A stretch of DNA of 64,000 nt from Jiangella endophytica (GTDB taxonomy: Bacteria > Actinomycetota > Actinomycetes > Jiangellales > Jiangellaceae), in the NCBI RefSeq assembly GCF_003427025.1, contig NZ_QVAI01000005.1, positions 124,001 to 188,000 on the forward strand, read 5' to 3'. Both the position numbers and the translations under genes were made by a program. The notes below the pieces were generated by a model, which was given only the letters and a program-made list of their open reading frames with translations, was not told the origin of the DNA and did not search any database. Positions 4,735 to 56,886 of this stretch are shown here, one piece after another; position 1 is the stretch's first letter; every line of letters starts with the position of its first letter.

Positions 4735-5211
4735 TCAGCTGCCCTGGCCGGACGGGCGCTCGTCGCCCTCGATCTCGCCCCGGATGGTGTCCTGGGCGCC
4801 GCCGGGTGCACCGGGTGCGCCGGGCGCACCGGGTGCGCCGCCGCCGAACAGGCCGGCCAGCGGGTTGCCCGCGCCGCCGGCGCCGCCGAGCAGGCCCGCG
4901 ACGTCGGCGTTGATCGAGCCCAGCTGCTCGTTGGCGCGGCGCTGGATCTCGGCGTGCGCGTCGCGGACCGCGGCGATGATGAGATCGGCCAGCGTCTCGA
5001 CGTCGTCGGGATCGACGACGGAGGGGTCCAGCTGCAGGTCGGTGAGCTCGCCGGCGCCCGTGACGGTGGCCCGGACCAGCCCGCCGCCGGCGCTGCCGGT
5101 GGCCTCGGCCTCGGTGATGTCCTGCTGGGCGGAGAGGAGCTGCTCCTGCATGCGCTGGGCCTGTTGCAGCAGCTGGCTCATGTCGAAGCCTTCGGAATCA
5201 GGCGGAAACAC
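4735..5211 (-). CDS. YbaB/EbfC family nucleoid-associated protein
   Basis: A 158-residue YbaB/EbfC protein, a small dimeric DNA-binding nucleoid protein. The conserved core MSQLLQQAQRMQEQL and the later GELTDLQLDPSVVDP are visible. The C-terminal tail is unusual: about 50 residues rich in glycine, alanine and proline with four GAP repeats (DNA repeat near 4807-4845). I prefer GTG 5211 because a strong GAGGAGG lies 5-6 nt upstream; the ATG at 5229 would place that SD inside the gene, and ATG 5181 lacks one. It lies between dnaX and recR, 12 nt from recR. Confidence 0.92.
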   Translation of the reverse strand: MFPPDSEGFDMSQLLQQAQRMQEQLLSAQQDITEAEATGSAGGGLVRATVTGAGELTDLQLDPSVVDPDDVETLADLIIAAVRDAHAEIQRRANEQLGSINADVAGLLGGAGGAGNPLAGLFGGGAPGAPGAPGAPGGAQDTIRGEIEGDERPSGQGS

Positions 5212-5312
5212 GGCTGCCTCCTCACCCACGCGGGGTCTTGTCTTGGCACATGGTCACAGCGAGCCTACGTCACCGACCCGGCCCGATCTGACCAGGTGCG
5301 TTGACGAAGTGA

Positions 5313-7835
5313 TCACTCGTGCTCGATCTCCGCGATGACGGTGGCGCCGAGCGTCCGTTCGAGCAGCTCGCGCTCGGACACGCCGTCGTCGGCCAGATCG
5401 GCGTCGCCGTCGGGATCGGCGTCGTCGTCGGTGGCCCGGCGAGCTCGAGCGGCATCGTCCCCGGTGGTCGCGGCGCCTGCCGCGGCACCGGCCGTCGCGC
5501 CGCCGCTCTGCTCCTTGACCAGGCGGGCGGCCTGCTTGGCCGCGGCCGCACGGCCGGACGGCGGCGCGTCGGGAGCGGCGTCGCCCGGGCCGCGGGGGTC
5601 GCCGGCGGGCGGCGTGGGCTGTGGTTGCGGCTGCGGTTCGGCCGACGGCGCAGGCCGGGCCGGGGCTGCGGGCGCGGACGGCGCGGCGGCGGCGCGGTTC
5701 TGGGCCGACGGGTCGGCGGACGGGTCGACGATGGCGTCGACGCGAAGGTCGAGCAGCAGGACCTCCTTGATGGCCTGCTGCAGGCACTCCTGGAAGTCCG
5801 CACGGCGGGCGAAGGTGTCGCGCAGCGTGGGCTGCCGGAACGCGAGGGTCAGCACACCGTCGGACACGTCGGAGACGACGGACTCCTGGGAGATCAGGCT
5901 CCACGGGGTGCGCTTGATCTCCTTGAGCCGGACCAGCACCTCGGGCCACATGCGGCGCAGGTCGGCGACGCCGCCCGACGCTCCGGCGGCCGGGATCGGC
6001 TGCGGCGCCGGCGTCGGTGCCGCAGCGGGCGGCGGCGTGCCAGCCTGCGGAGGCCGGGCCGCTTGGGCGGGCTGGGGCGCCTGAGCGGGCGGCTGCTCGG
6101 CCAGCGGGGTCTGGGTGGGAGCTGCCGCCGCCTCGTGGGCCCGCGGCGCGGACGGCAGGTCGGGCTCGGCCACGGCCGCCGGCTCGTCGGCCGGCGACCA
6201 GTCGGGTGCACCAGGCTCGTCGGCGGGCGCCTCGAACGTGGGCGCCGGCCGGCTGACGGGCTCGGACGGCAGCGGCGCGACGTCGGCGGACTCAGCGGCA
6301 GGTGGCGGACTCGGCGCCGGCTCGGCTGGGGCTGCTGCCGCGTCGGGAACCGGGGGTGCGGGGGCGGACGCCGTCGGTGCCGGCTCGGCCGGCGGCGGCG
6401 CGGCGACCGGAGCCGTTGCCTCGGGCGAGGCCGCGGCAGGCGGCGCGGCGACCGGAGCCGTTGCCTCGGGCGTCGCGGGCGGGGCCGTGGCCGGCGGCGA
6501 CGTGGGCGGGGCCGTGGCCGGCGGCGACGTGGGCGCGGAGTCGGCGGACGGGTTCACCCGCGCGAACGCGGCCGCCCGCTTGGACACGCCCGGCGGAGCC
6601 TCGGCGACCGGCGCCGGGGGCTCGGCCGGCGCGGCAGTGACCGGTGCTGCGGCGGACGGGAGCGGCTCGCCGCCGGTGAGCCGGCGCTCGACGCGATCGA
6701 GGCGAGCCTGGACGCCGGAGACGGTGTCGTCGGCGCCGGGCAGCAGCAGCCGCGCACACACCAGCTCGAGCTGCAGCCGCGTCGGCGTGGCGCCCTTCAT
6801 GGCGGTGATGCCCTCGTCGACGACGGCGGCCAGCCGGACGAGGTCGGACGGGCCGAACCGAGTGGCCTGCATGGCCATGCGTTCGGCCTGCTCGGGCGGG
6901 AGGTCCAGCAGCCCCTCGGCGACGGCGTCGGGCGCCGCCCGCAGGACGATGAGGTCGCGGAAGCGCTCCAGCAGGTCGGTGAGGAACCGCCGAGGGTCGT
7001 GCCCGGCGTCCATGACCTGGTCGACCGCGGCGTAGACCGATCGGCCGTCGGCCGCGGAGATGGCCTCGACGACCTGGTCGAGCATGGCGGCGTCGGTGAA
7101 CCCGAGCAGCGCCACCGCGAGGTCGTACGTGACGCCGTCGTCGCCCGCACCGGCGATGAGCTGGCCGAGGATCGACTGCGCGTCGCGCGCGGACCCGGCG
7201 CCGGCCCGGGCGACCAGCGCCAGCGCGGCCGGCTCGATGGGCACGCCCTCCTGCTCGCAGATCCAGCCGAGGTTCTGCTGCAGCGTCTTCGTGGGGATGA
7301 GCCGGAACGGGTAGTGGTGCGTACGCGACCGGATGGTGCCGATGATCTTGTCGGGCGCCGTGGTGGCGAAGATGAACTTGAGGTGAGCCGGCGGCTCCTC
7401 GATCAGCTTGAGCAGCGCGTTCGCCGCGCCCGGGCCCAGCTGGTGCGCCTCGTCGATGATGTAGATCTTGAACCGCGACGACACGGGCGCGAAGTGGGCC
7501 TTCTCGCGCAGGTCGCGGGCGTCGTCGACCAGGCCGTGCGTGGCGGCGTCGAGCTCGACGACGTCGATGTTGCCGGACCCGTTCGGCGCGAGGTCGAGGC
7601 ACGACTGGCACTGCCCGCACGGCTCGTCGGTGGGGCCCTTCTCGCAGTTCAGCGACCGCGCCAGAATGCGCGCCGACGACGTCTTGCCGCACCCGCGCGG
7701 GCCGGAGAAGAGGTAGGCGTGGTGGACGCGGTCGTTGGCCAGCGCCCGCATCAGCGGGACGGTGACATGCTCCTGCCCCACCACGTCAGCGAACCGGCCT
7801 GGCCGATAGGTGCGATACAGAGCTAGCGACGACAC
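5313..7835 (-). CDS. dnaX: DNA polymerase III subunit gamma/tau
   Basis: An 840-residue clamp-loader ATPase. The conserved start VSSLALYRTYRPGRFADVVGQ fixes the GTG at 7835; a longer frame to 7964 would read into the SRP RNA. The AAA+ region shows Walker A GPRGCGKTS, a four-cysteine zinc module (CEKGPTDEPCGQCQSC), the DEAH-type IDEAHQLG and a sensor-1 region. After the collar domain comes a long Ala/Pro/Thr/Glu-rich linker (about residues 385-640) with internal tandem repeats, then the tau C-terminal domain (RMWPEVLVRLKEIKR). The linker is longer and more repetitive than in model bacteria. Confidence 0.95.
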   Translation of the reverse strand: MSSLALYRTYRPGRFADVVGQEHVTVPLMRALANDRVHHAYLFSGPRGCGKTSSARILARSLNCEKGPTDEPCGQCQSCLDLAPNGSGNIDVVELDAATHGLVDDARDLREKAHFAPVSSRFKIYIIDEAHQLGPGAANALLKLIEEPPAHLKFIFATTAPDKIIGTIRSRTHHYPFRLIPTKTLQQNLGWICEQEGVPIEPAALALVARAGAGSARDAQSILGQLIAGAGDDGVTYDLAVALLGFTDAAMLDQVVEAISAADGRSVYAAVDQVMDAGHDPRRFLTDLLERFRDLIVLRAAPDAVAEGLLDLPPEQAERMAMQATRFGPSDLVRLAAVVDEGITAMKGATPTRLQLELVCARLLLPGADDTVSGVQARLDRVERRLTGGEPLPSAAAPVTAAPAEPPAPVAEAPPGVSKRAAAFARVNPSADSAPTSPPATAPPTSPPATAPPATPEATAPVAAPPAAASPEATAPVAAPPPAEPAPTASAPAPPVPDAAAAPAEPAPSPPPAAESADVAPLPSEPVSRPAPTFEAPADEPGAPDWSPADEPAAVAEPDLPSAPRAHEAAAAPTQTPLAEQPPAQAPQPAQAARPPQAGTPPPAAAPTPAPQPIPAAGASGGVADLRRMWPEVLVRLKEIKRTPWSLISQESVVSDVSDGVLTLAFRQPTLRDTFARRADFQECLQQAIKEVLLLDLRVDAIVDPSADPSAQNRAAAAPSAPAAPARPAPSAEPQPQPQPTPPAGDPRGPGDAAPDAPPSGRAAAAKQAARLVKEQSGGATAGAAAGAATTGDDAARARRATDDDADPDGDADLADDGVSERELLERTLGATVIAEIEHE
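6480..6533. repeat. 27-bp tandem repeat, two perfect copies, inside dnaX
   Basis: Positions 6480-6506 and 6507-6533 are identical 27-mers encoding the repeated TSPPATAPP-type segment of the dnaX linker. A second imperfect pair of about 33 nt (6395-6427 and 6440-6472) encodes the EATAPVAAPP repeats. Both units are multiples of 3, so copy-number change would keep the frame. Confidence 0.85.
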
Positions 7836-7883
7836 CTTGCGAACCCTAGTCGTCCCCGCCGACAGATTCCCATCGAGGACGCA

Positions 7884-7977
7884 AAGGACCCCTCGCGCAC
7901 CCGGTAGAGCCCACTTACCCTTGCTGCCTTCCGGCCCTGGGGGAGTTAGGCGGGGTGCCGCCACGCGAGGGGTCGGC
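7884..7977 (-). ncRNA. ffs: bacterial small signal recognition particle RNA
   Basis: Read on the minus strand, the region folds as a long hairpin: the ends GACCCCTCGCG and CGCGAGGGGTC (7964-7974 and 7887-7897) are perfectly complementary. The apical part carries the conserved SRP domain GGCCGGAAGGCAGCA with its GGAA tetraloop and asymmetric internal loop. It binds Ffh and targets nascent membrane proteins. Its place between dnaX and tRNA-Ser is the usual actinobacterial one. Exact ends are uncertain by a few nucleotides. Confidence 0.93.
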
Positions 7978-8061
7978 TGCCAGTGTACGTGCTCGGCGGC
8001 TCGGCATCACATCGCGCCGCCGATTTCAGGCGGAGCGCCCACGTCCGATAACCTCTCCGAC

Positions 8062-8149
8062 GGAGGATTCGCCTAGTGGCCTAGGGCGCACGCTTGGAAA
8101 GCGTGTTGGGAGCAATCCCTCAGGGGTTCGAATCCCCTATCCTCCGCCA
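8062..8149 (+). tRNA. tRNA-Ser (anticodon GGA)
   Basis: The acceptor stem GGAGGAT pairs with ATCCTCC. The anticodon stem-loop CGCTTGGAAAGCG shows GGA, there is a long class II variable arm, and the T arm contains GGTTCGAATCC. The encoded G discriminator at 8146 is followed by CCA at 8147-8149. The 3' part (8092-8149) doubles as the left attachment site of the integrated element, so the tRNA stays intact because the element supplies its 3' end. Confidence 0.97.
8092..8149 (+). repeat. attL: attL: 58-bp direct repeat, tRNA side
   Basis: Identical over 58 nt to 25394-25451, running from the 5' side of the anticodon stem through CCA. The base immediately before (8091) and after (8150) differs from the other copy. 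The integrase gene lies 75 bp inside. The crossover point is probably in the anticodon region, as for other tyrosine integrases using tRNA genes (inference). Confidence 0.93.
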
Positions 8150-8224
8150 CGCTCACCAGGGCAGACGCACCGACCGGCCTCAAGCGAGGTCGGGCCGGTG
8201 GGGCCGTTCGTCTCAGTTCTCGTC

Positions 8225-9472
8225 TCATTTGCCTTCGCCGTCGGCCTTCTCGTCGTCGCCCTGGTCCGCCCACAGCAGCCCGTCCACCTGCGCCGCGACC
8301 GCTCGTCGGATCGGGTCGGTGACGTGCTGGTATCGGGCCGCCATCGCTGTCGACGACCATCCCATGATGGACATGACGGTGCGTTCCGGCACGCCGAGGA
8401 TCAGCAGCACGGTCGACGCCGTATGCCGGGCATCGTGCAGCCGGCCGTCACGAACGCCGGCGGACTTCAGCAGCCGCTTCCACTCGTGACAGTCGGTCGC
8501 CGGGGCGAGCGCTCTCCCGTTGGGCTTGGCGAACACCCAGCCCTCGTCCTTCCAGTCATCCCCGGCGGCGATCCGCTCGGCGTCCTGCTCCTTCCGGTGA
8601 GTTTCGAGCAGCGTGACGAGCTGGGTCGGTAGTCCGACGACGCGGCGGCCGGCGCGTGACTTCGTGTCCTTCGTGTCGGCGTTGACCTGGATGCGCTGCG
8701 GGCAGTCGCCAGCCTTCTGCCGTCCGCACGTCTCGCCGCAGCCGTGGGCGAACTTCGGCCGCAGCCGGCTACGGCGGACGCGCAAGGTCCCGGTCTCCAG
8801 GTCGAGATGCGACCACTTCAACCCCAGCGCCTCACCCTGTCGAAGACCCAACGCCAGCGCGACCGCCCACCGGGCACTGTTCCGGCGCTCGCCGGCCACC
8901 TTCAGCAGCCGCTTGACCTCGTCGATGTCGTACGGCTCGACCTCGATCTCCTGGACGTTCGGAGCCTTCGCCTGGGTGGCCGGGTTCGAGGTCAGGTACT
9001 TGCGTCGCACGGCTTCGTTCAGCGCGGCCCGGATGGTCCGATGCACGTGGTGCGCCGTTCCCGCGCTGCGACCCTTCTCCTTCTGCATGGTCGCGTACAG
9101 CTTCTCCAGGTGCTCGGGCTGCAGGCGTTCGAGGCGGTGCTTCCCGACACCGGGCACCAGGTGAACCCTGATGTCCCGGCGATACCCGTCGTGCGTGTAC
9201 TCGCTGATCGCGGGCGGAGCGGCGATGTTCTCGATCCAATGGGTTAGCCACCTCTCGACGGTCCACCGTTGGCCGGCCTTGCGTACGGCTCCGGCGTCGC
9301 GGTCGCGTTCGAGCTTGCGCACCGCGGCGATGACCTCGGCTTCGGTCTTGCGTTGCACGTGTCGGCGGTCCGGGGAGCCGTCGTCCTTGATGCCAACGGT
9401 GACGCGGCCGTGCCAGTCGCCGTCCTTACCGAGATAGATGCTCGACGCGCCGTTGGGTCTGCGGGTGGCCAT
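8225..9472 (-). CDS. int: tyrosine site-specific integrase
   Basis: A 415-residue tyrosine recombinase that would join attP to the tRNA-Ser attB. It has an N-terminal arm-binding domain, a SAM-like core-binding domain (about 70-160) and a catalytic domain. The active-site set is complete: R211 (LGLRQGEAL), H346xxR349 (LHDARHT), W372 and Y381 (ARYQHVTD). A cysteine-rich insert (HGCGETCGRQKAGDC, about 243-257) sits in the catalytic domain. ATG 9472 (MATRRPNG) overlaps the xis stop by 1 nt (TGATG); the in-frame start at 9535 would run into xis. Placement next to the tRNA fits an AICE left end. Confidence 0.96.
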   Translation of the reverse strand: MATRRPNGASSIYLGKDGDWHGRVTVGIKDDGSPDRRHVQRKTEAEVIAAVRKLERDRDAGAVRKAGQRWTVERWLTHWIENIAAPPAISEYTHDGYRRDIRVHLVPGVGKHRLERLQPEHLEKLYATMQKEKGRSAGTAHHVHRTIRAALNEAVRRKYLTSNPATQAKAPNVQEIEVEPYDIDEVKRLLKVAGERRNSARWAVALALGLRQGEALGLKWSHLDLETGTLRVRRSRLRPKFAHGCGETCGRQKAGDCPQRIQVNADTKDTKSRAGRRVVGLPTQLVTLLETHRKEQDAERIAAGDDWKDEGWVFAKPNGRALAPATDCHEWKRLLKSAGVRDGRLHDARHTASTVLLILGVPERTVMSIMGWSSTAMAARYQHVTDPIRRAVAAQVDGLLWADQGDDEKADGEGK

Positions 9473-9702
9473 CACGCCACCTGTCCCGCAGCTTCGGCAC
9501 GGCTCAGCTGGTCCGCGACGTACTCGCGCAGGCACTCCAGCGGCACGCGGCGGAGGTAGCCGATCTTGATGGAGCGGACCGCTCCGTCCATGACCAGCGC
9601 GTACATCGTGGTCCGGCCGATGCGCAGATAGCGTGCGGCTTCCTCGATGGTCAGGACGTCACCGGCTGATCGGATTTCGATCAGTGTCTCGTCGTGGTTC
9701 AT
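9472..9702 (-). CDS. xis: excisionase / helix-turn-helix protein
   Basis: A 76-residue protein with a MerR-like winged helix of the excisionase type (LTIEEAARYLRIGRTTMYALV, then IKIGYLRRVPLECL). It would bind the attachment regions and bias the integrase toward excision. It stops within the int start codon, so the two are co-translated. It lies 17 nt downstream of rep. The size and order rep-xis-int match pSAM2-type elements. Confidence 0.9.
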   Translation of the reverse strand: MNHDETLIEIRSAGDVLTIEEAARYLRIGRTTMYALVMDGAVRSIKIGYLRRVPLECLREYVADQLSRAEAAGQVA

Positions 9703-9719
9703 ACGGGCTGTTCCTTCCG

Positions 9720-11261
9720 TTACGCCGCCGGGGCAGCGGCAGGCCTTGCAGTTGCCGAAAGACTGAGCGCCTGGGGTCCGGCGCGGGTCCTGGCGTCCTT
9801 GTACTGGGTTCGCCAGCGGTGTTTCTGTGCGATGGCGTGGGCGATGAGCCGGGCGTAGGCCGGGGCGTCGAGGTCGCCCGGCTTGGTCGTGGTCCAGACG
9901 AAGCGGGGCAGGCCGTCTGGCCGGGCTTCGGTTGCCGAAAGCTCGTCGTGGTCATCCATCTCGATCCCGGCCTCGGCCAGGACCGCGCGGACGACGGCGG
10001 CGCGGTCCGCGCGATGGTCGTCAAGAGTCTTGCCCGTCCACCGCCGGCTGACGAGGACGCGGCGGCCACCGAGGCCGAGATGGTCGCGGTCGTGCGCCTT
10101 CGACCCGCAGCGGCCCGGCTCCATGCCGCCCTTCGCGTCCTTGGGCTGGACGCCGTAGCGCAGCCAGTTCGCGCACGTGGGTGAGCACGGCAGCCACCGG
10201 ACCTCTTCTGCGATCCGGTCGATGTGCGCCCTGCGCGCGGCTGACACGGGTGCCTCGCCGTCGGAGTCGTCGTGGAGCGGGTCAGTGATCGACTTCGTGA
10301 GGTACTTCGTCAGGTAGCCGACGACCCGGTCCGCCAGCGGGGTTCCTGCGATGACGCCCTGAATGTCGACCTGCGACCCCGCCCGGATCACGTGCGCCGG
10401 CCTCACGTCCGGGTCGTCGTCCAGGGCATCCAGCGCCTCATCCCACGACGGCAGCACCACACCAGTGAGCGGATCGGCATAGGCCCGCGCCAGCTCGTCC
10501 CACACCGGCAACGTCTCGGGGTCGGTGTAGACGGGTTCGTCGAGCTGCGGCCACCACACCTGGTGATACGTCGCCGCGACCACCTGACGCAGCAGCTTGC
10601 GCGGGATGGCACCGCGGATCGCGGCGTGCAGGTGCGGCGCGAGGCGGCGTTGGGGTTCGACGGTGGCGAAGTACTGCACCGAGTACCCGGTAGCGCGGCG
10701 GAGGTTCTGCCAGAACCGGTCCACGAGCTTCGGGAAGTGCATCGCATCCAGCGCGGCCCGCCGATGGTCATATGCGCGCGGGTCGACCGGCACCCCCTCG
10801 CCCGTGACGCGGCCGTACGACGGCAGGGTCAGCGTCACGAACATCGACGGCCGATAGGTCTTCCCGTCCGCCGAGGTGAACACCCGCCCGGTGGTGCGGT
10901 CCGACACCGCCAGCCGCGGGAGATCAGGCGCGTCCTGCCGCCGCCGAGTCGACCGCACCCGACGCCCCGTCTCGTCGTCGTCCTGGTCGACGTCGTCGCC
11001 CTCTGCGCCGTCGGGGTCGGGTTCTGGCTTGGGTGGGTCCTCGGTGAGGTGCCAGCCCTCGCGGCACTGCTGAATCCGCAGCCGGCGGGCAGCGTCCGCG
11101 CACGAGGGGCACACCTTCGCCCGCGTGGCCCCGCACGGGATGACGACGGTGCGGACGGTGCCGGTGAGGGTGTCGGTGACGCGTTGCAGGATCGGCCGCA
11201 CGCACACCCGCTCACCGGCCGCGAGCTCGCGCATCGTCGCGTCATTAGGCAGGGCCGTCAC
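9720..11261 (-). CDS. replication initiator protein, RepSA-like
   Basis: A 513-residue replication initiator of the kind found in pSAM2-type elements, expected to nick the element's origin and start rolling-circle replication after excision. A cysteine cluster lies near the N-terminus (C43, C51, C54), followed by an acidic linker. The HUH-like motif PHLHA (H210, H212) comes next, with a tyrosine-rich YLTKYLTK segment further on as a candidate catalytic tyrosine. The GTG start overlaps the translocase stop by 4 nt (GTGA). I saw no unambiguous double-strand origin nearby. Confidence 0.88.
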   Translation of the reverse strand: MTALPNDATMRELAAGERVCVRPILQRVTDTLTGTVRTVVIPCGATRAKVCPSCADAARRLRIQQCREGWHLTEDPPKPEPDPDGAEGDDVDQDDDETGRRVRSTRRRQDAPDLPRLAVSDRTTGRVFTSADGKTYRPSMFVTLTLPSYGRVTGEGVPVDPRAYDHRRAALDAMHFPKLVDRFWQNLRRATGYSVQYFATVEPQRRLAPHLHAAIRGAIPRKLLRQVVAATYHQVWWPQLDEPVYTDPETLPVWDELARAYADPLTGVVLPSWDEALDALDDDPDVRPAHVIRAGSQVDIQGVIAGTPLADRVVGYLTKYLTKSITDPLHDDSDGEAPVSAARRAHIDRIAEEVRWLPCSPTCANWLRYGVQPKDAKGGMEPGRCGSKAHDRDHLGLGGRRVLVSRRWTGKTLDDHRADRAAVVRAVLAEAGIEMDDHDELSATEARPDGLPRFVWTTTKPGDLDAPAYARLIAHAIAQKHRWRTQYKDARTRAGPQALSLSATARPAAAPAA

Positions 11262-52773: not shown

Positions 52774-52824
52774 AAGCATTAAATGTCATTGCATAGATAC
52801 GGTGGCGGTGTTAGAGTGCGCTCC

Positions 52825-53202
52825 ATGAGCGGGACCGAGGAGCGTGAGCTGGTCACCCAGTGGCGCGACCTCATGACCTGCTACAACAAGGTCGCTTGCG
52901 ACCTCGATCGCGAGCTTCAGGACCAGCACGGACTCGGCCTGAGCGAGTTCGAGGCGCTCGACCGGCTGATCGAGTCGGGTCAGGACAAACTGCGCATGCA
53001 CGAGCTCGCCGAGGGCATGTACCTCAGCCAGAGCGCGTTCTCCCGCACCGTCGCGCGGCTCGAGCGGGCCGGCCTGGTCGGACGGTCCATGTGCATGGAC
53101 GACCGCCGCGCGATGTTCGTGACGGCGACCGAGAACGGCCGGGCCCGGCACTCCGAGGCCCGCGACACTCACCGCAAGGTGCTGGCCCACCACCTCAGCT
53201 GA
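52825..53202 (+). CDS. MarR family regulator
   Basis: A 125-residue MarR regulator with winged helix (LRMHELAEGMYLSQSAFSRTVARLERAGLVGRSMCMDDRRAMFV). It is divergent from an MFS efflux pump, the common arrangement in which a ligand releases the repressor. ATG 52825 chosen; ATG 52783 would put the start inside the operator region. A C in the wing (SMCMD) could be redox-sensitive (speculative). Confidence 0.9.
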   Translation: MSGTEERELVTQWRDLMTCYNKVACDLDRELQDQHGLGLSEFEALDRLIESGQDKLRMHELAEGMYLSQSAFSRTVARLERAGLVGRSMCMDDRRAMFVTATENGRARHSEARDTHRKVLAHHLS

Positions 53203-53208
53203 GCCGGC

Positions 53209-54102
53209 TCACCCCGTCACCAGACACAGCGTCGCCTCCGCCACGCCGACGCGCAGCTGCTGACCCCAGCTGAGCACCAGCCGGTCCGCCTCCAGGCCGT
53301 CGCCGAACACCACGAGCCCGTCGGTCTCAGCGATCAGCTCCAGCCGGTCGCCGGTCGCCAGCAGCCCGTCGACGCAGGCCGTCCCCGTCGACGGCGACGG
53401 CCATGCCTCGCGGACGAACCACGCAAGCGTCCGGTCGACGGGACCGGGCAGGCGCGGCGGCGTGGACCGGCCGCTCACGAGCGAAGCGCACCAGCCGGTC
53501 GCACCGGTGCCGGTCCCGACGATGACCCCGGACGACGACTGCCGCTCCGCCTCCCGGCCGGGCACCGTCAGCGAGTACCGCGCCGACTGGTGACTCGCGT
53601 GACCGGCGAAGATCTCGTTCACCGCGAGCAGCGTCTGCCCGTCGTCGAGCTCCGCCGTCACCATGGTCCGCCGCTCGACGCCCGCGCGGTCCGCGACGAC
53701 GTCTGCCAACAGCCGCGCGACGCGGTCGGGCACGTGCCGGACCAGGACGCCCGGGTTGCGCTCCGGGTCCGGGTTGACCCCGACGACCGGCTGACCGGCC
53801 AGGTACTTCGCGACGTTCGCGACCAGCCCGTCCTGCCCGACGACCACCACGACATCGCCGTCCTCGAACCGGAACCGGTCCAGGTCGGCGCGCTCGACCG
53901 TCCCGCGCCGCCAGTCGCTCGCAACCGCGACCGCGACCTGCTGCCGGGCCGACTCGTCGGCGTCGTGCCGACGCTGGACGGCGGCGAGGTCGCGGCCGCG
54001 TCCCCGCAGGAAGAACTCGGCCTGACCTCGGGTGCCGTGCCGGTCGACCAGCTCCTCCAGCTCGGTGCGGCGGTGAACGACCACCACGCGTGGCGCCAGC
54101 AT
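53209..54102 (-). CDS. NAD(+)/NADH-kinase-like protein, divergent
   Basis: A 297-residue protein of the NAD-kinase/diacylglycerol-kinase superfamily. The GGDGT motif is altered to VGQDG ([18 protein letters not shown], about 96-113), and the second motif reads [18 protein letters not shown] where kinases have TGSTAY. The altered GGDGT-equivalent may mean lost or changed catalysis. Its start overlaps the SPFH gene stop by 1 nt (TGATG). It is best seen as the partner of that SPFH protein. Confidence 0.8.
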
Positions 54103-55106
54103 CAGCGCGGCGCCCCGTCGGTCAGCTTCGCCAGTACCGACGTCAGCAGGTCCGGCGTGATGTTCACCATCCCGACGTCGGGCAGCCCGCCGGCCAGCTC
54201 GCGCAACGCCAGAGCCAGCAGCGTGCGGTGGTCCAGCTCAGCCAGGACGGCCATCCGCGCCGACTCGGCGTCCGCCTCGGCCGTCCCCGTCTGCCGGATC
54301 CGGTCGGCCTCGGCACGGGCTGCCAGCCCGACGCGTTCCGCCTCGCCCTCGGCGGCGATCCGCGCGGCCGCCGCCTCCTCCGTCGCCCGGCGCCGCTCGT
54401 TGGCGCCGTGCTGCGCGACCAGCCGCTCCTCGCGGGCGGCCAGCTCGATCTTCGACTGCAGTTCGTTCTCGCTGATCGCCCGTTCCCGTTCGACGGCGTG
54501 CGCACGGCGCTCGTAGGTGGCGCGGTCGGCCTCCTCCTGGATCAGCTCGCGGGCCGGCGTCTGCAGCGCTCGCTCGATGTCCGGATCGGGCCGCACGGCG
54601 ACAACGCGCACGTCCAGCACGACGATGCCGGTGTCGCCCAATCGGGCATCGTCGACGAGGCCGGTGCGCAGCCGCTCGCGGATCGCCGCGACCCCGGCGC
54701 CCAGGGCGTCGGCCATCGGGATCGTCACGAGCAGGTCGGCGGCGTGCTGCTGAGCCGTCTCCGTCAGCAGGTGCGCGACCTGATCGAGCGGCGCGGACCG
54801 CCAGCGACCGGTGGCCGTGTCGATGGCGAAGTCGATACGGCCGGCGACCTGTTCGGGGTCGGCGAACCGGTACGTCACGGTCGACTGCACGGCGATCTTC
54901 TGGAAGTCGCAGGTGCGGGCGTGGAACAGCAGCGGTAGTTCACGGTCGTCCACGGGGACCTCGCTGAGCGCTGCGGTCAGCGGCCGGAACCAGAACGAGC
55001 AGCTGGTGCCGCTGTACACGACGTCGTCGCCGCGCTGGTGGATGACGTGTTCGGTCGGGGTCGAGCGGACGTGTCGCACGACGCCGAAGCTGCGGATCTC
55101 TGCCAT
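54102..55106 (-). CDS. SPFH/band 7 domain protein
   Basis: A 334-residue SPFH (prohibitin/slipin) protein. A band-7 domain ([21 protein letters not shown] through [21 protein letters not shown]) is followed by a long charged coiled coil (about 205-300; [35 protein letters not shown]). There is no obvious N-terminal membrane helix. It starts at ATG 55106 after two operator-like sites. It is coupled to the NAD-kinase-like gene. Confidence 0.88.
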
Positions 55107-55128
55107 CTCGCTGGTCCTCTCGTCACTT

Positions 55129-55184
55129 TTATCGTCTCTTCGACGATAAGGGGATCTGGGTGTAATCGTCAAGATGACGAGATA
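55129..55184. promoter_or_regulatory. two NrtR-type operator sites
   Basis: Site 1 at 55129-55149 is TTATCGTC-N5-GACGATAA, a perfect inverted repeat. Site 2 at 55163-55184 has the same core, ATCGTC-N5-GACGA, and reaches the ATG at 55184. They lie between the divergent SPFH and Nudix-regulator genes, 34 bp apart start to start (about three helical turns). They are probably the binding sites of the neighbouring NrtR-like protein. Confidence 0.85.
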
Positions 55185-55195
55185 TGGTGTGGGAC

Positions 55196-55888
55196 ATGGC
55201 CGGTTCCGAGCACCCGCCGTTCGCCGTGACCGTCGACCTCGTGATCCTCACCGTGCGATCCGGCCGGTTCGCCGCGCTGGTCGTCGAACGAGGAGAGGAT
55301 CCGTTCCACGGCCGCCTCGCCCTGCCCGGCGGCTTCGTCCGTCCTGACGAGGACCTTCCCGACGCGGCGCTGCGGGAGCTGCGCGAAGAGACCGGGCTCT
55401 CGCCATCGCTGGGTCATCTCGAACAACTGGCCAGCTACGGCGCGCCCGGCCGCGACCCCCGCCAACGCGTCGTCTCCGTCGCCTACCTCGGGCTGGTGCC
55501 GGACCTACCTGAGCCCGTCGCCGGCAGCGACGCCGCGTCGAGCCGGTTCGTCCCGGTCGACGACCTGTTGCGCGACGCCGGGTCGCTCGCCTTCGACCAC
55601 GGCCGGATCCTGGCCGACGGCGTGGAACGGGCGCGCGCGAAGCTCGAGTACACGTCGCTTGCCACGGCGTTCTGCCCCGACGAATTCACGGTCGGCGAGC
55701 TGCGGGCCGTCTACGAGGCGGTCTGGGGGGTCGAGCTGGATCCGCGCAACTTCCACCGCAAGGTCACCGGCACGCCCGGCTTCCTCGAGCCCACCGTCGG
55801 CACCACCACCCGTGGCGGTGGCCGGCCCGCTCAGCTCTATCGCCGCGGTCCCACCACCGCGCTCATGCCGCCGCTCCTCCGTCCCTGA
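55196..55888 (+). CDS. Nudix-domain transcriptional regulator, NrtR-like
   Basis: A 230-residue protein with an N-terminal Nudix domain and a C-terminal winged helix (FTVGELRAVYEAVWGVELDPRNFHRKVTGTPGFLEP), the NrtR architecture. The Nudix box GGFVRPDEDLPDAALRELREETGL is intact (REETGL present), so it may still hydrolyse. Known NrtR proteins sense ADP-ribose and repress NAD-metabolism genes. ATG 55196 is chosen; ATG 55184 is also in frame. Confidence 0.88.
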   Translation: MAGSEHPPFAVTVDLVILTVRSGRFAALVVERGEDPFHGRLALPGGFVRPDEDLPDAALRELREETGLSPSLGHLEQLASYGAPGRDPRQRVVSVAYLGLVPDLPEPVAGSDAASSRFVPVDDLLRDAGSLAFDHGRILADGVERARAKLEYTSLATAFCPDEFTVGELRAVYEAVWGVELDPRNFHRKVTGTPGFLEPTVGTTTRGGGRPAQLYRRGPTTALMPPLLRP

Positions 55889-56022
55889 ACCCCGTCCTCG
55901 CCGCGCCGCGCGCCTGCTTCACCCGCCGTCTCGCGCCGGTCGGCCCACACGTCGTGGCCCCGCCGGCCGCGCCGGCCGGTGCCCGGGTGTCCCCGGCGTC
56001 GTCCGCGACATAGGCTCGAAGG

Positions 56023-56886
56023 GTGCTCGACCGCATCGACCCCGGCCACCCGGCCTGGCCGGCTGTCGGCGAGGCGACGACGGTGCTGTCGGGCCGGCCG
56101 GTGGCCGTGCTGACCGGAGCCGGCATCTCCACCGACTCCGGCATCCCCGACTACCGCGGCCCCGACTCCCCACCACGCACGCCCATGACGTACCAGCAGT
56201 TCGTCGGCGACCTCGACCGCCGCCGCCACTACTGGGCCCGCAATCACGTCGGCTGGCGACACGTCCACAGCACCAGGCCCAACCCCGGTCACCTGGCCGT
56301 CAGCCGCATGGAGGCCGGCGGCGCCGCGGTCGGCGTCATCACCCAGAACGTCGACACCCTGCACGACGCCGCCGGCAGCCGGAACGTCATCGACCTGCAC
56401 GGACGCTACGACCGCGTCATCTGCCTGGGCTGCCGCCGGGTCGTCCCGCGCGACCACGTCGCCGACCGGCTGACCGCCCTGAACCCGGATTTCGCCGACG
56501 AGGTCGCCGACGCCGAGATCGCACCCGACGCCGACGCCGTCATCGAGGCGACGGCGCACTTCCGGATCGCCGACTGTGAGGCCTGCGGCGGCATGCTCAA
56601 GCCGGACATCGTCTACTTCGGCGAGAACGTGCCGAAGCCCCGGGTCGAGGCGGCGTACGCGCTGGTCGACTCCGCGGCGGCGCTGCTGGTCGCGGGGTCG
56701 TCGCTCACCGTCATGTCGGGCCTGCGGTTCGCCCGGCACGCGCACAAGACCGGCCGGCCGGTGGTCATAGTCAACCGCGGCACCACCCGGGGCGACGACC
56801 TCGCGTCGGTCAAGGTCGACGCCGGCTGCTCTGCCGTCCTGACCGTGCTCGCCTCCGTCCTGACGGGTTCGGCCGTCGCGCGCTGA
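56023..56886 (+). CDS. Sir2-family NAD-dependent protein deacylase
   Basis: A 287-residue sirtuin. It has the NAD-binding [15 protein letters not shown] (about 32-46), the catalytic H126 in DLHGRYD, and zinc-binding pairs C134-LG-C137 and a second CEAC near residue 188. Reactions are NAD-dependent deacylation. A possible TAGGCT -10 box lies just upstream of the GTG, which lacks a good ribosome-binding site; the transcript may be leaderless. It follows the NrtR-like gene by about 135 bp on the same strand. Confidence 0.92.

What the first reader, a model, noticed from the sequence alone, without database searches (positions are those of the whole stretch)
53209..56886. NAD-centred cluster: NrtR-like regulator, SPFH protein, NAD-kinase-like protein and sirtuin
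Divergent genes for a Nudix/winged-helix regulator and an SPFH-NAD-kinase-like operon share two matching ATCGTC-N5-GACGA sites, and a sirtuin follows. The regulator may sense a product of sirtuin action (ADP-ribose or its derivative), giving a feedback loop. The NAD-kinase-like protein has lost its GGDGT consensus, and the SPFH protein lacks a visible membrane helix. The combination is plausible as an NAD-sensing module but is not a characterised pathway as far as I know.
Basis: partly seen in the sequence, partly recalled or inferred. Interest (0 to 1): 0.75.

Follow-up and report, generated by a model that had tools for sequence, protein, structure and literature searches.

The report
NrtR-controlled SPFH and NAD-kinase-like cassette
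Three neighbouring genes (a repressor of the kind that senses NAD breakdown products, a soluble scaffold-type protein and an unusual relative of NAD kinase) form a compact unit found in several groups of bacteria, with a matching genetic switch, whose job is still unknown; the sirtuin gene beside it is not part of it.

Summary
A NrtR-type Nudix/winged-helix repressor (55184-55888) is divergent from an operon for a soluble SPFH protein (54102-55106) and an NAD-kinase-fold protein (53209-54102). Among 80 named relatives of the kinase-like gene, SPFH adjoins it in 80 and the Nudix gene is divergent beside the pair in 60. No other neighbour family recurs comparably. The trio also occurs in Rhizobium, Providencia, Methylomonas and Moraxella. 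The two palindromes lie on the -35 and -10 of the SPFH promoter; this overlay is conserved in 48 of 53 two-site loci (0 of 1276 background windows have two sites). In six unnamed Streptomyces-like genomes the same operator precedes pncB, which ties the regulator to NAD. The sirtuin is backbone: 6 of 6 congeners without the trio keep it at the otherwise syntenic locus. The kinase motif is not decayed: G[QP]DGLVAN replaces GGDGT in 63 of 63 aligned members and in nine non-actinobacterial copies, while the Asp, the Asn-Glu/Asp pair and an NADK2-like fold (Z 25.6) remain. Best reading: an ADP-ribose-type signal derepresses an NADK-like enzyme with an SPFH scaffold. Ligand, substrate and physiology are untested.

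The parts
53209..54102 (-). NAD-kinase-fold protein, 297 aa, of a G[QP]DGLVAN-type family close in fold to mitochondrial NADK2; second gene of the operon
   Evidence: NAD_kinase 20.6 bits, below cut-off 25.5; NADK2 7r4j E 3e-14; AF2 pLDDT 94.8; VIA Z 25.6 to 7r4l, 281 aligned; motif counts
54102..55106 (-). soluble SPFH (Band 7) protein, 334 aa: SPFH domain about 1-173, one helix 175-290, no transmembrane segment by hydropathy; first gene of the operon
   Evidence: Band_7 39 bits, scanned as 356 aa from the upstream TTG; AF2 pLDDT 87.2; prohibitin, erlin, HflK/C, flotillin, vault protein; hydropathy
55130..55148 (.). operator 1 (proximal to SPFH), TATCGTC-N5-GACGATA, covers the -10 TATCGT of the SPFH promoter
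55164..55182 (.). operator 2 (distal), AATCGTC-N5-GACGAGA on the + strand, covers the -35 TTGACG of the SPFH promoter; immediately before the Nudix start
55143..55172 (-). promoter of the SPFH-kinase operon: TTGACG (55172-55167), 18 nt, TATCGT (55148-55143)
   Evidence: only promoter-like hit in 54900-56200; shuffles mean 0.0; conserved overlay in relatives
55184..55888 (+). NrtR-family Nudix plus winged-helix regulator, 234 aa (a start at 55196 is also possible); intact Nudix box
   Evidence: NUDIX 78.7, NrtR_WHD 56.7 bits; alignment A5; box counts; profile hits 2fml, AraR 5bs6, NrtR 3gz5
56023..56886 (+). Sir2-family protein deacetylase; genomic backbone, judged NOT part of the cassette
   Evidence: (PRK05333 312.6 bits)
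52783..53202 (+). MarR-family regulator; left flank of the cassette (next to Sir2 in congeners without the cassette)

Best explanation
A three-gene, self-regulated accessory cassette of NAD metabolism. The NrtR-type Nudix/winged-helix protein is a repressor. It binds two palindromes that sit on the -35 and -10 elements of the SPFH-kinase promoter (and just before its own gene), so binding shuts off the operon and probably itself. A Nudix ligand from NAD breakdown, most likely ADP-ribose or a close derivative, releases it. The operon then makes a soluble SPFH protein, which by homology should assemble into a ring or cage through its long helix, and an NADK-fold enzyme held by or near that scaffold that phosphorylates an NAD-type nucleotide, with a changed phosphate-loop motif and therefore probably a changed donor or acceptor. 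In actinobacteria the regulator keeps an intact Nudix box, so it may also destroy its own signal and reset the switch. Shown here by sequence: gene set, operator/promoter overlay, phylogenetic spread, the pncB site in Streptomyces-like genomes, exclusion of the sirtuin, predicted fold of the kinase-like protein. Inferred: ligand, repression, assembly of SPFH, SPFH-kinase contact, catalysis.
For: Gene set: kinase-like and SPFH genes adjacent in 17 of 17 strong-hit genomes of a 118-genome class sample (dropped: three weak kinase hits G008, G016, G087 and one weak SPFH hit G085) and, same strand with SPFH directly upstream, in 80 of 80 named loci; Nudix gene divergent within 233 nt of the SPFH match in 60 of 80. 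In those neighbourhoods the three families recur in 44, 41 and 27 genus labels by my gene caller, the next family (an SDR) in 7. The same divergent trio is annotated in Rhizobium etli, Providencia, Methylomonas and Moraxella and found by tblastn in Cupriavidus and Proteus; SPFH plus kinase-like gene in Roseomonas and Treponema. Switch: one or more sites (at most 2 mismatches) in 69 of 80 loci, two sites (at most 3 mismatches each) in 53 of 80; background 2 and 0 of 1276 windows. In the 53 two-site loci the distal spacer always ends TT (making TTGAC) against 6 of 53 proximal; the proximal site always starts TA against 24 of 53 distal; -35/-10 spacer 17-18 nt in 52 of 53. In 48 of 53 the -10 coincides with the proximal operator; in the other five the operators are 44-45 bp apart and a TANNNT between them keeps the 17-18 nt spacing. 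G026 and G115, whose best Nudix match anywhere is 46% identical, lack the sites. Where the Nudix orthologue lies elsewhere the sites are still before SPFH, in 6 of 6 g22 genomes, and a 2-mismatch site is before the distant Nudix gene in 7 of 7 g22 loci. NAD link: operator before pncB in 6 of 6 g22 genomes. The regulator profile hits NrtR 3gz5. Unit: six of six congeners without the cassette have MarR next to Sir2; two retain remnants of the cassette. Enzyme: NADK2 fold Z 25.6; Asp 63/63, Asn 63/63, Glu/Asp 59/4. A canonical NAD kinase is elsewhere in the genome (C3:244684), so this one is not the housekeeping copy.
Against: I found no binding, ligand or enzyme data for any member. The pncB operator is absent from the 8 non-g22 genomes tested, including the window's own, so in this genome nothing but the cassette itself ties the regulator to NAD. 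NrtR-family proteins also regulate sugars: AraR (PMC4666351, search listing and abstract start only). 20 of 80 loci have no Nudix gene in the stretch held, and 8 of those 20 have no operator with at most 2 mismatches. 27 of 80 do not show the two-site layout at my thresholds. The Nudix box looks degenerate in the proteobacterial copies (by eye), so the self-resetting step cannot be general. In G027 the best proximal site has 3 mismatches. The Gly-to-Gln/Pro change sits in the phosphate loop and could equally mean loss of catalysis.
Confidence: 0.55

Rival explanations
1. Pseudoenzyme reading: the kinase-like protein has lost phosphoryl transfer and acts as an NAD(P)- or ADP-ribose-binding subunit that loads or gates the SPFH assembly.
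For: GGDGT replaced by G[QP]DGL in 63 of 63 and by GQDGL in nine non-actinobacterial copies; a canonical NAD kinase is present elsewhere; strict pairing with a scaffold-type protein.
Against: The Asp of the motif, the Asn-Glu/Asp pair and the SSG and DG positions are conserved across phyla, which is unusual for a dead enzyme.
Confidence: 0.25
2. The regulator senses something other than an NAD product (for instance a sugar, as AraR does), and the NAD link is only a family resemblance.
For: NrtR-family members include AraR (5bs6 is a top hit of the profile); no NAD gene other than the kinase-like one and the sirtuin is adjacent in the window; the pncB site is confined to g22 among 14 genomes.
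Against: The operon encodes an NADK-fold protein wherever found, and the same operator is on pncB in 6 of 6 g22 genomes.
Confidence: 0.15
3. The cassette is an accessory of RNA repair or biological conflict (Pnkp/Hen1 association).
For: The Pnkp ligase gene lies within 5 kb of it in G027 and in eleven g22 genomes (12 of 64 cassette genomes); Pnkp is present in 48 of 64 cassette genomes against 72 of 329 others (odds ratio 10.7); patchy, lost as a unit, and on plasmids in places.
Against: The control family RtcB gives an odds ratio of 12.4 in the same genomes, so the co-occurrence is not specific; 0 of 80 named loci have a Pnkp or Hen1 match in the stretch held (up to 8 kb each side); genus g29 has four cassette and four Pnkp genomes with none having both; no PADLOC hit except one weak Nudix match (PDC-S07, E 0.004); no relative found in the phage and viral collections.
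Confidence: 0.1
4. One reading: sirtuin activity makes the ligand that the regulator senses.
For: The sirtuin lies beside the cassette in G000, G059, G134, G154, G174 and G226 (positions; gene order checked in G059, G154 and G174); sirtuins consume NAD (established knowledge).
Against: The sirtuin is present in all 13 genus/family genomes checked whether or not the cassette is, is not beside the cassette in G192 of the same family (other contig), and stays in place in six congeners without the cassette; among 80 named loci only one distant 31% Sir2 is near.
Confidence: 0.03

Closest known systems
NrtR family of Nudix-related repressors of NAD metabolism (NrtR 3gz5; MsNrtR, PMC6800001)
   Same: Nudix plus NrtR winged-helix domains, divergent gene order, palindromic operators, autoregulatory layout, a site before pncB in g22 genomes
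   Different: Target is an SPFH-NADK-like operon; the operator differs from the mycobacterial GTTTTCGA-N7-TCGAAAAC (PMC6800001, passages seen); the Nudix box is intact here whereas MsNrtR has a degenerate one and no detectable ADP-ribose hydrolysis (same passages)
Mitochondrial NAD kinase NADK2 (7r4j-7r4m, 7n29)
   Same: Best sequence-profile and fold match, including the N-terminal part (residues 5-213 of the profile), GVN-DPER, LNE-G and SSG--TGTG--W segments
   Different: GGDGT replaced by G[QP]DGL; shorter (297 aa); 22% identity; genomic pairing with SPFH
SPFH (Band 7) proteins: prohibitin, erlin, HflK/C, flotillin, major vault protein
   Same: Band_7 domain over cut-off and long helix after it; Foldseek and VIA matches
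   Different: No hydrophobic membrane segment; encoded with an NADK-like gene instead of NfeD or FtsH partners. Two soluble subfamilies (SPFH8, SPFH9) without documented members are described in PMC2636767 (passages seen)
Second nadK of Streptomyces and other actinobacteria (nadK2 of PMC6675116)
   Same: An additional NADK homologue in mycelial actinobacteria (passages seen)
   Different: Those are described as duplications of nadK; whether any of them is this family could not be checked

Membership tests
NrtR family regulator | Nudix domain followed by NrtR winged-helix domain | tested here: met
   NUDIX 78.7 bits (cut-off 21.1), NrtR_WHD 56.7 bits (cut-off 27)
NrtR family regulator | NCBIfam equivalog NF050029 (ADPR responsive repressor) over its cut-off | tested here: not met
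   116.5 bits, cut-off 400; so family-level, not the same equivalog
NrtR family regulator | palindromic operators at the divergent promoter | tested here: met
   (sequence only)
NrtR family regulator | controls NAD biosynthesis or salvage genes | tested here: inconclusive
   operator before pncB in 6 of 6 g22 genomes, 0 of 8 others, own genome included among the misses
NrtR family regulator | release from DNA by ADP-ribose | not testable with these tools
   needs EMSA or footprint
NAD kinase (EC 2.7.1.23) | NADK fold | tested here: met
   predicted model against human NADK2, Z 25.6, 281 residues aligned, rmsd 3.0
NAD kinase (EC 2.7.1.23) | GGDGT motif | tested here: not met
   GQDGL 56 of 63, GPDGL 7 of 63; GQDGL in nine non-actinobacterial copies
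NAD kinase (EC 2.7.1.23) | Asp of the motif and NE/ND pair | tested here: met
   D91 63/63, N162 63/63, E163 59/63 (D in 4). That these are the catalytic and acceptor residues is recalled knowledge of NADK structures
NAD kinase (EC 2.7.1.23) | Pfam or NCBIfam NAD kinase model over cut-off | tested here: not met
   window protein 20.6 bits, cut-off 25.5; NCBIfam best 39.2 bits, cut-off 316; at E up to 0.01 only 9 of 63 members match NAD_kinase
NAD kinase (EC 2.7.1.23) | NAD phosphorylating activity | not testable with these tools
   needs assay
SPFH / Band 7 superfamily | Band_7 domain over cut-off | tested here: met
   39 bits, cut-off 23.6
SPFH / Band 7 superfamily | N-terminal membrane segment typical of most subfamilies (PMC2636767) | tested here: not met
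   0 of 51 reach mean hydropathy 1.6 over 19 residues
SPFH8 or SPFH9 soluble subfamilies of PMC2636767 | match to the subfamily model | not tested
Sirtuin as member of the cassette | conserved linkage with the other genes | tested here: not met
Pnkp/Hen1 RNA-repair operon | linkage or specific co-occurrence | tested here: inconclusive
   Pnkp within 5 kb in 12 of 64, 0 of 80 named loci, control RtcB equally associated

The most novel reading that the evidence does not exclude
A widespread and so far unrecognised NAD-crisis cassette. When NAD is broken down (toxins, defence NADases, damage), ADP-ribose rises and lifts a NrtR-type repressor; a soluble, vault-like SPFH cage is built together with a G[QP]DGL-type nucleotide kinase whose product (a phosphorylated NAD or ADP-ribose species) protects, stores or re-routes the nucleotide pool. 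The kinase family would be a bacterial sister of mitochondrial NADK2 with a different donor or acceptor.
Probability: 0.2. Interest if true: 0.85.

Novelty: new variant of a known kind. Interest (0 to 1): 0.66.

Why it matters
The cassette gives a precise handle (a matched repressor, two operators on one promoter, one scaffold-type protein, one enzyme-like protein) on two open questions: what soluble bacterial SPFH proteins do, and what non-canonical NAD kinases in bacteria are for. Its recurrence in Actinomycetota and Pseudomonadota (with the SPFH-kinase pair also in a spirochaete), with the same pair each time and mostly the same kind of regulator beside it, suggests that the pair works together. 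The kinase-like protein falls below the Pfam and NCBIfam cut-offs and its relatives are annotated as 'sugar kinase' or 'hypothetical protein' in public records, so the family is easily missed. If the regulator answers to ADP-ribose, the cassette is a ready-made reporter of NAD breakdown.

Tried and rejected
Sirtuin loop: rejected by the congeners that lack the cassette and by the 80-locus survey.

RNA-repair link: looked strong at first (Pnkp beside the cassette in G027 and four g22 genomes, with Hen1 where my caller found it; odds ratio 10.7 in 393 genomes). Downgraded because RtcB as a control gave 12.4 in the same genomes, none of the 80 named loci has a Pnkp or Hen1 match in the stretch held, and adjacency may stem from as few as two events. 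No phylogenetic correction was made for either odds ratio.

Defence or phage origin: PADLOC gave one weak Nudix match (PDC-S07, E 0.004); no match in the phage collection; the viral scan matched 10 stretches, none a relative.

Proteobacterial operators: TAGTGTC-N5-GACACTA-like repeats are visible in Moraxella and Proteus, but my palindrome count against shuffles is uneven (shuffles of 500 at least as high: L215 0, L214 22, L211 62, L212 113, L210 500), so I do not claim them.

Tree of the regulators: SPFH-linked actinobacterial and g22 trans-located regulators are not resolved from each other. Rows L050_9 and L052_8 are wrong-frame ORFs of my simple gene caller and are to be ignored; by the tblastn positions both loci (and L056) do hold a Nudix gene next to the NAPRTase gene, like L048, L049 and L051, but the tree and one search used the wrong reading for those two. 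No clear operator was found at these pncB-linked paralogues.

Gene caller: my GC3 caller missed or misplaced genes in some loci (one search found SPFH in 71 and the Nudix in 47 of 80); tblastn (80 and 60 of 80) is the count used.

Rodionov 2008 (NAR, gkn047) and Burroughs and Aravind 2016 could not be read, and RegPrecise is not among the tools, so priority cannot be judged fully. Paper searches in whose listings (titles and abstract starts; most full texts not opened) I saw no description of the trio.


Full report
What is in the window. Searches confirm four genes: a kinase-like protein (53209-54102, minus), an SPFH protein (54102-55106, minus; the ATG at 55106 is conserved as MAD/MAE in the relatives), a Nudix/winged-helix protein (55184-55888, plus) and a Sir2 protein (56023-56886, plus). 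The two minus-strand genes overlap by one base. Pfam gives NUDIX 78.7 and NrtR_WHD 56.7 bits for the regulator, Band_7 39 bits for SPFH, and only 20.6 bits (cut-off 25.5) for the kinase-like protein. A canonical NAD kinase is elsewhere in the genome (C3:244684, 458 bits).

The unit is three genes. In a class sample of 118 genomes, 17 had a strong kinase-like hit (three further hits at E 4e-5 to 2e-7 were dropped as ordinary relatives) and the same 17 had the SPFH gene next to it (one weak SPFH hit dropped). The Nudix gene was divergent beside them in 9 of 17 (G000, G059, G027, G084, G038, G095, G100, G056, G072). A scan of named genomes kept the best 80 of at least 571 relatives. By tblastn SPFH lies directly upstream on the same strand in 80 of 80, and the Nudix gene is divergent within 233 nt of the SPFH match in 60 of 80. 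Pnkp and Hen1 match in 0 of 80, and a Sir2 (31% identical, about 4 kb off) in 1 of 80 (flanks up to 8 kb, less at contig ends). Clustering all called neighbours of these 80 loci, the three families recur in 44, 41 and 27 genus labels (MAGs counted as separate labels) and the next one, an SDR family, in 7. The cassette therefore sits in otherwise unrelated places.

The sirtuin is not part of it. All 13 genomes checked in the genus and family carry the Sir2 gene, 7 with the kinase-like gene and 6 without. In the six congeners without it (G144, G113, G041, G075, G124, G209) the locus is otherwise syntenic with the window, and the MarR gene (52816-53202) is followed directly by Sir2. Two of the six still hold pieces of the cassette: G144 matches window 53209-53288 and 55689-55812, G113 matches 55825-55888. 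So at least in those two the trio was lost as a block and the sirtuin stayed. In G192 (another genus of the family) the kinase-like gene and Sir2 are on different contigs.

Spread. Full-length kinase-like homologues (36-60% identity) lie on 57 plasmid-collection records, 42 of them Rhizobium, with Roseomonas, Treponema, Providencia, Cupriavidus, Methylomonas, Moraxella, Acinetobacter and Proteus among the rest. Annotated records show the divergent NUDIX/SPFH/kinase-like order in Rhizobium etli, Providencia, Methylomonas and Moraxella. Roseomonas and Treponema have SPFH plus kinase-like without an adjacent Nudix gene. In the unannotated Cupriavidus and Proteus stretches tblastn finds all three. 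The two proteobacterial regulators scanned (Rhizobium, Providencia) carry NrtR_WHD over its cut-off. The phage and viral collections gave no relative.

The switch. Upstream of SPFH, a site matching TMTCGTC-N5-GACGAKA with at most 2 mismatches occurs in 69 of 80 loci, and two sites (at most 3 mismatches each, 30-48 bp apart) in 53 of 80. In 1276 windows of the same size placed elsewhere in these loci the counts are 2 and 0. With a Nudix gene nearby the figures are 57 and 46 of 60; without one, 12 and 7 of 20. In the 53 two-site loci the start-to-start distance is 33-34 bp in 47. The distal spacer ends in TT in all 53, which makes TTGAC, against 6 of 53 proximal sites; the proximal site starts TA in all 53, fitting TANNNT, against 24 of 53 distal sites; and the -35/-10 spacer is 17-18 nt in 52 of 53. 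In 48 of 53 the -10 is the start of the proximal operator; in the five loci with 44-45 bp between sites a TANNNT between the operators keeps the 17-18 nt spacing. In the window this is TTGACG (55172) - 18 nt - TATCGT (55143), the only promoter-like hit in 54900-56200. Two palindromes lying on -35 and -10 are what a repressor needs. In G000 the motif with at most 1 mismatch occurs at three places, two of them here (control 2). G026 and G115 (genus g29), which have the operon but whose best Nudix match is 46% identical, lack the sites.

Link to NAD. In the unnamed g22 genomes (which I take for Streptomyces from size and content; the named Streptomyces loci behave alike in lacking an adjacent Nudix gene) the regulator orthologue lies elsewhere. 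The operators are still before SPFH in the 6 of 6 g22 genomes of the class sample that have the operon (G039, G112, G057, G073, G018, G101), and a 2-mismatch site lies just upstream of the distant regulator in 7 of 7 g22 loci read (one of the seven, G089, lacks the operon). In the same six g22 genomes a site with 1-2 mismatches lies 86-88 nt before the NAPRTase domain of pncB (6 of 6), whereas the eight other genomes searched, the window's own included, have none there (best 4 or more mismatches). In G057 the next gene looks like a nicotinamidase (read by eye, no family search). So in g22 one regulator probably controls itself, nicotinate salvage and the SPFH-kinase operon. In the window's genome the cassette appears to be its main target.

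The regulator. The Nudix box G-x5-E-x7-REU-x-EE-x-GU is complete in 26 of 27 aligned actinobacterial regulators (the exception, L049, is a pncB-linked paralogue with Q for one E). The box looks degenerate in the proteobacterial ones (by eye). MsNrtR has a degenerate box, no detectable ADP-ribose hydrolysis, and is released from DNA by ADP-ribose (PMC6800001, passages; at 50 mM as printed there). The profile of these regulators hits 2fml, AraR 5bs6 and NrtR 3gz5 (that 3gz5 is the Shewanella NrtR is recalled). ADP-ribose is therefore the likeliest ligand but is not shown.

The kinase-like protein. AlphaFold2 gives mean pLDDT 94.8. The best solved structures are human mitochondrial NADK2 (Foldseek E 6e-18; VIA Z 25.6, 281 aligned, rmsd 3.0, 22% identity); bacterial NADKs follow at Z 20-23. 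By sequence, NADK2 is hit over residues 5-213 at E 3e-14, bacterial NADKs only over about 69-211. The Rhizobium and Providencia copies also hit NADK2 first, but weakly and over parts only (E 1e-6 over 9-126; E 1e-4 over 161-211). In 63 aligned members the motif is GQDGLVAN (56) or GPDGLVAN (7), never GGDG, and nine non-actinobacterial copies (two of them, pHHV216 and Moraxella, alike in this protein) all have GQDGLVAN. Asp, Asn and Glu/Asp of the presumed acceptor site are kept. With the window protein below the Pfam cut-off, and only 9 of 63 members matching NAD_kinase at E up to 0.01, the family is effectively unnamed; public records call it 'sugar kinase', 'hypothetical protein' or 'ATP-NAD kinase PpnK-type protein'.

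The SPFH protein. Model pLDDT 87.2: an SPFH domain up to about residue 173, one helix 175-290, and a C-terminal part of low confidence. Matches are prohibitin, erlin, HflK/C, flotillin and, over about 300 residues at high rmsd, the soluble major vault protein (Z 11-14, where long helices inflate scores). No hydrophobic segment is present (0 of 51 at 1.6). A soluble ring or cage is an inference from the family.

What was weakened by controls. Pnkp co-occurrence (48 of 64 against 72 of 329) is matched by RtcB (56 of 64 against 119 of 329) and so is not specific. Physical closeness to Pnkp (within 5 kb in 12 of 64) remains a small lead.

Priority. None of the listings of searches shows a paper on the trio, but the NrtR regulon paper of 2008 could not be read and RegPrecise was not available; they may list parts of it.

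Noticed in passing
L214 5094-8550, L215 around 5127-9828, L213 6426-9844: In Moraxella osloensis the cassette abuts tetR-tet(H), in Proteus mirabilis tet(J) lies just downstream of it, and plasmid pHHV216 carries the end of a truncated SPFH gene plus the kinase-like gene between a transposase and tetR-tetH, as if the resistance segment had been picked up together with its old neighbour. Described only.
   Followed up: partly
L060 1926-5962; L069, L071, L072, L073: Pnkp (with Hen1 in L060, L069, L072 and L073 as called) beside the cassette in G027 and in several g22 genomes.
   Followed up: yes
L055 950-6147: In congener G113, which lacks the cassette, a Pnkp gene is followed by an AAA_28 protein and a 57%-identical Nudix/winged-helix paralogue: a possible second kind of NrtR-linked unit.
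   Followed up: no
L184 about 5071 and 11510 (G018:C1:439070 and 445509): Two further perfect TATCGTC-N5-GACGATA sites 6.4 kb apart in one g22 genome, not near NAD genes that I recognise.
   Followed up: no
L209 101-1832: Treponema saccharophilum plasmid: a HEPN-family protein (pEK499_p136) divergent from a NrtR-type Nudix regulator with an intact-looking box, 4 kb from the SPFH-kinase pair.
   Followed up: no
L117 4479-6041 and similar loci: A flotillin-like membrane SPFH gene (recognised by eye, no family search) lies near the cassette in 5 loci of 4 genera.
   Followed up: no
window 53209-54102: The kinase-like family is closer to mitochondrial NADK2 than to bacterial NADK in the PDB comparison; a common origin with the mitochondrial clade could be tested with a tree.
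   Followed up: partly
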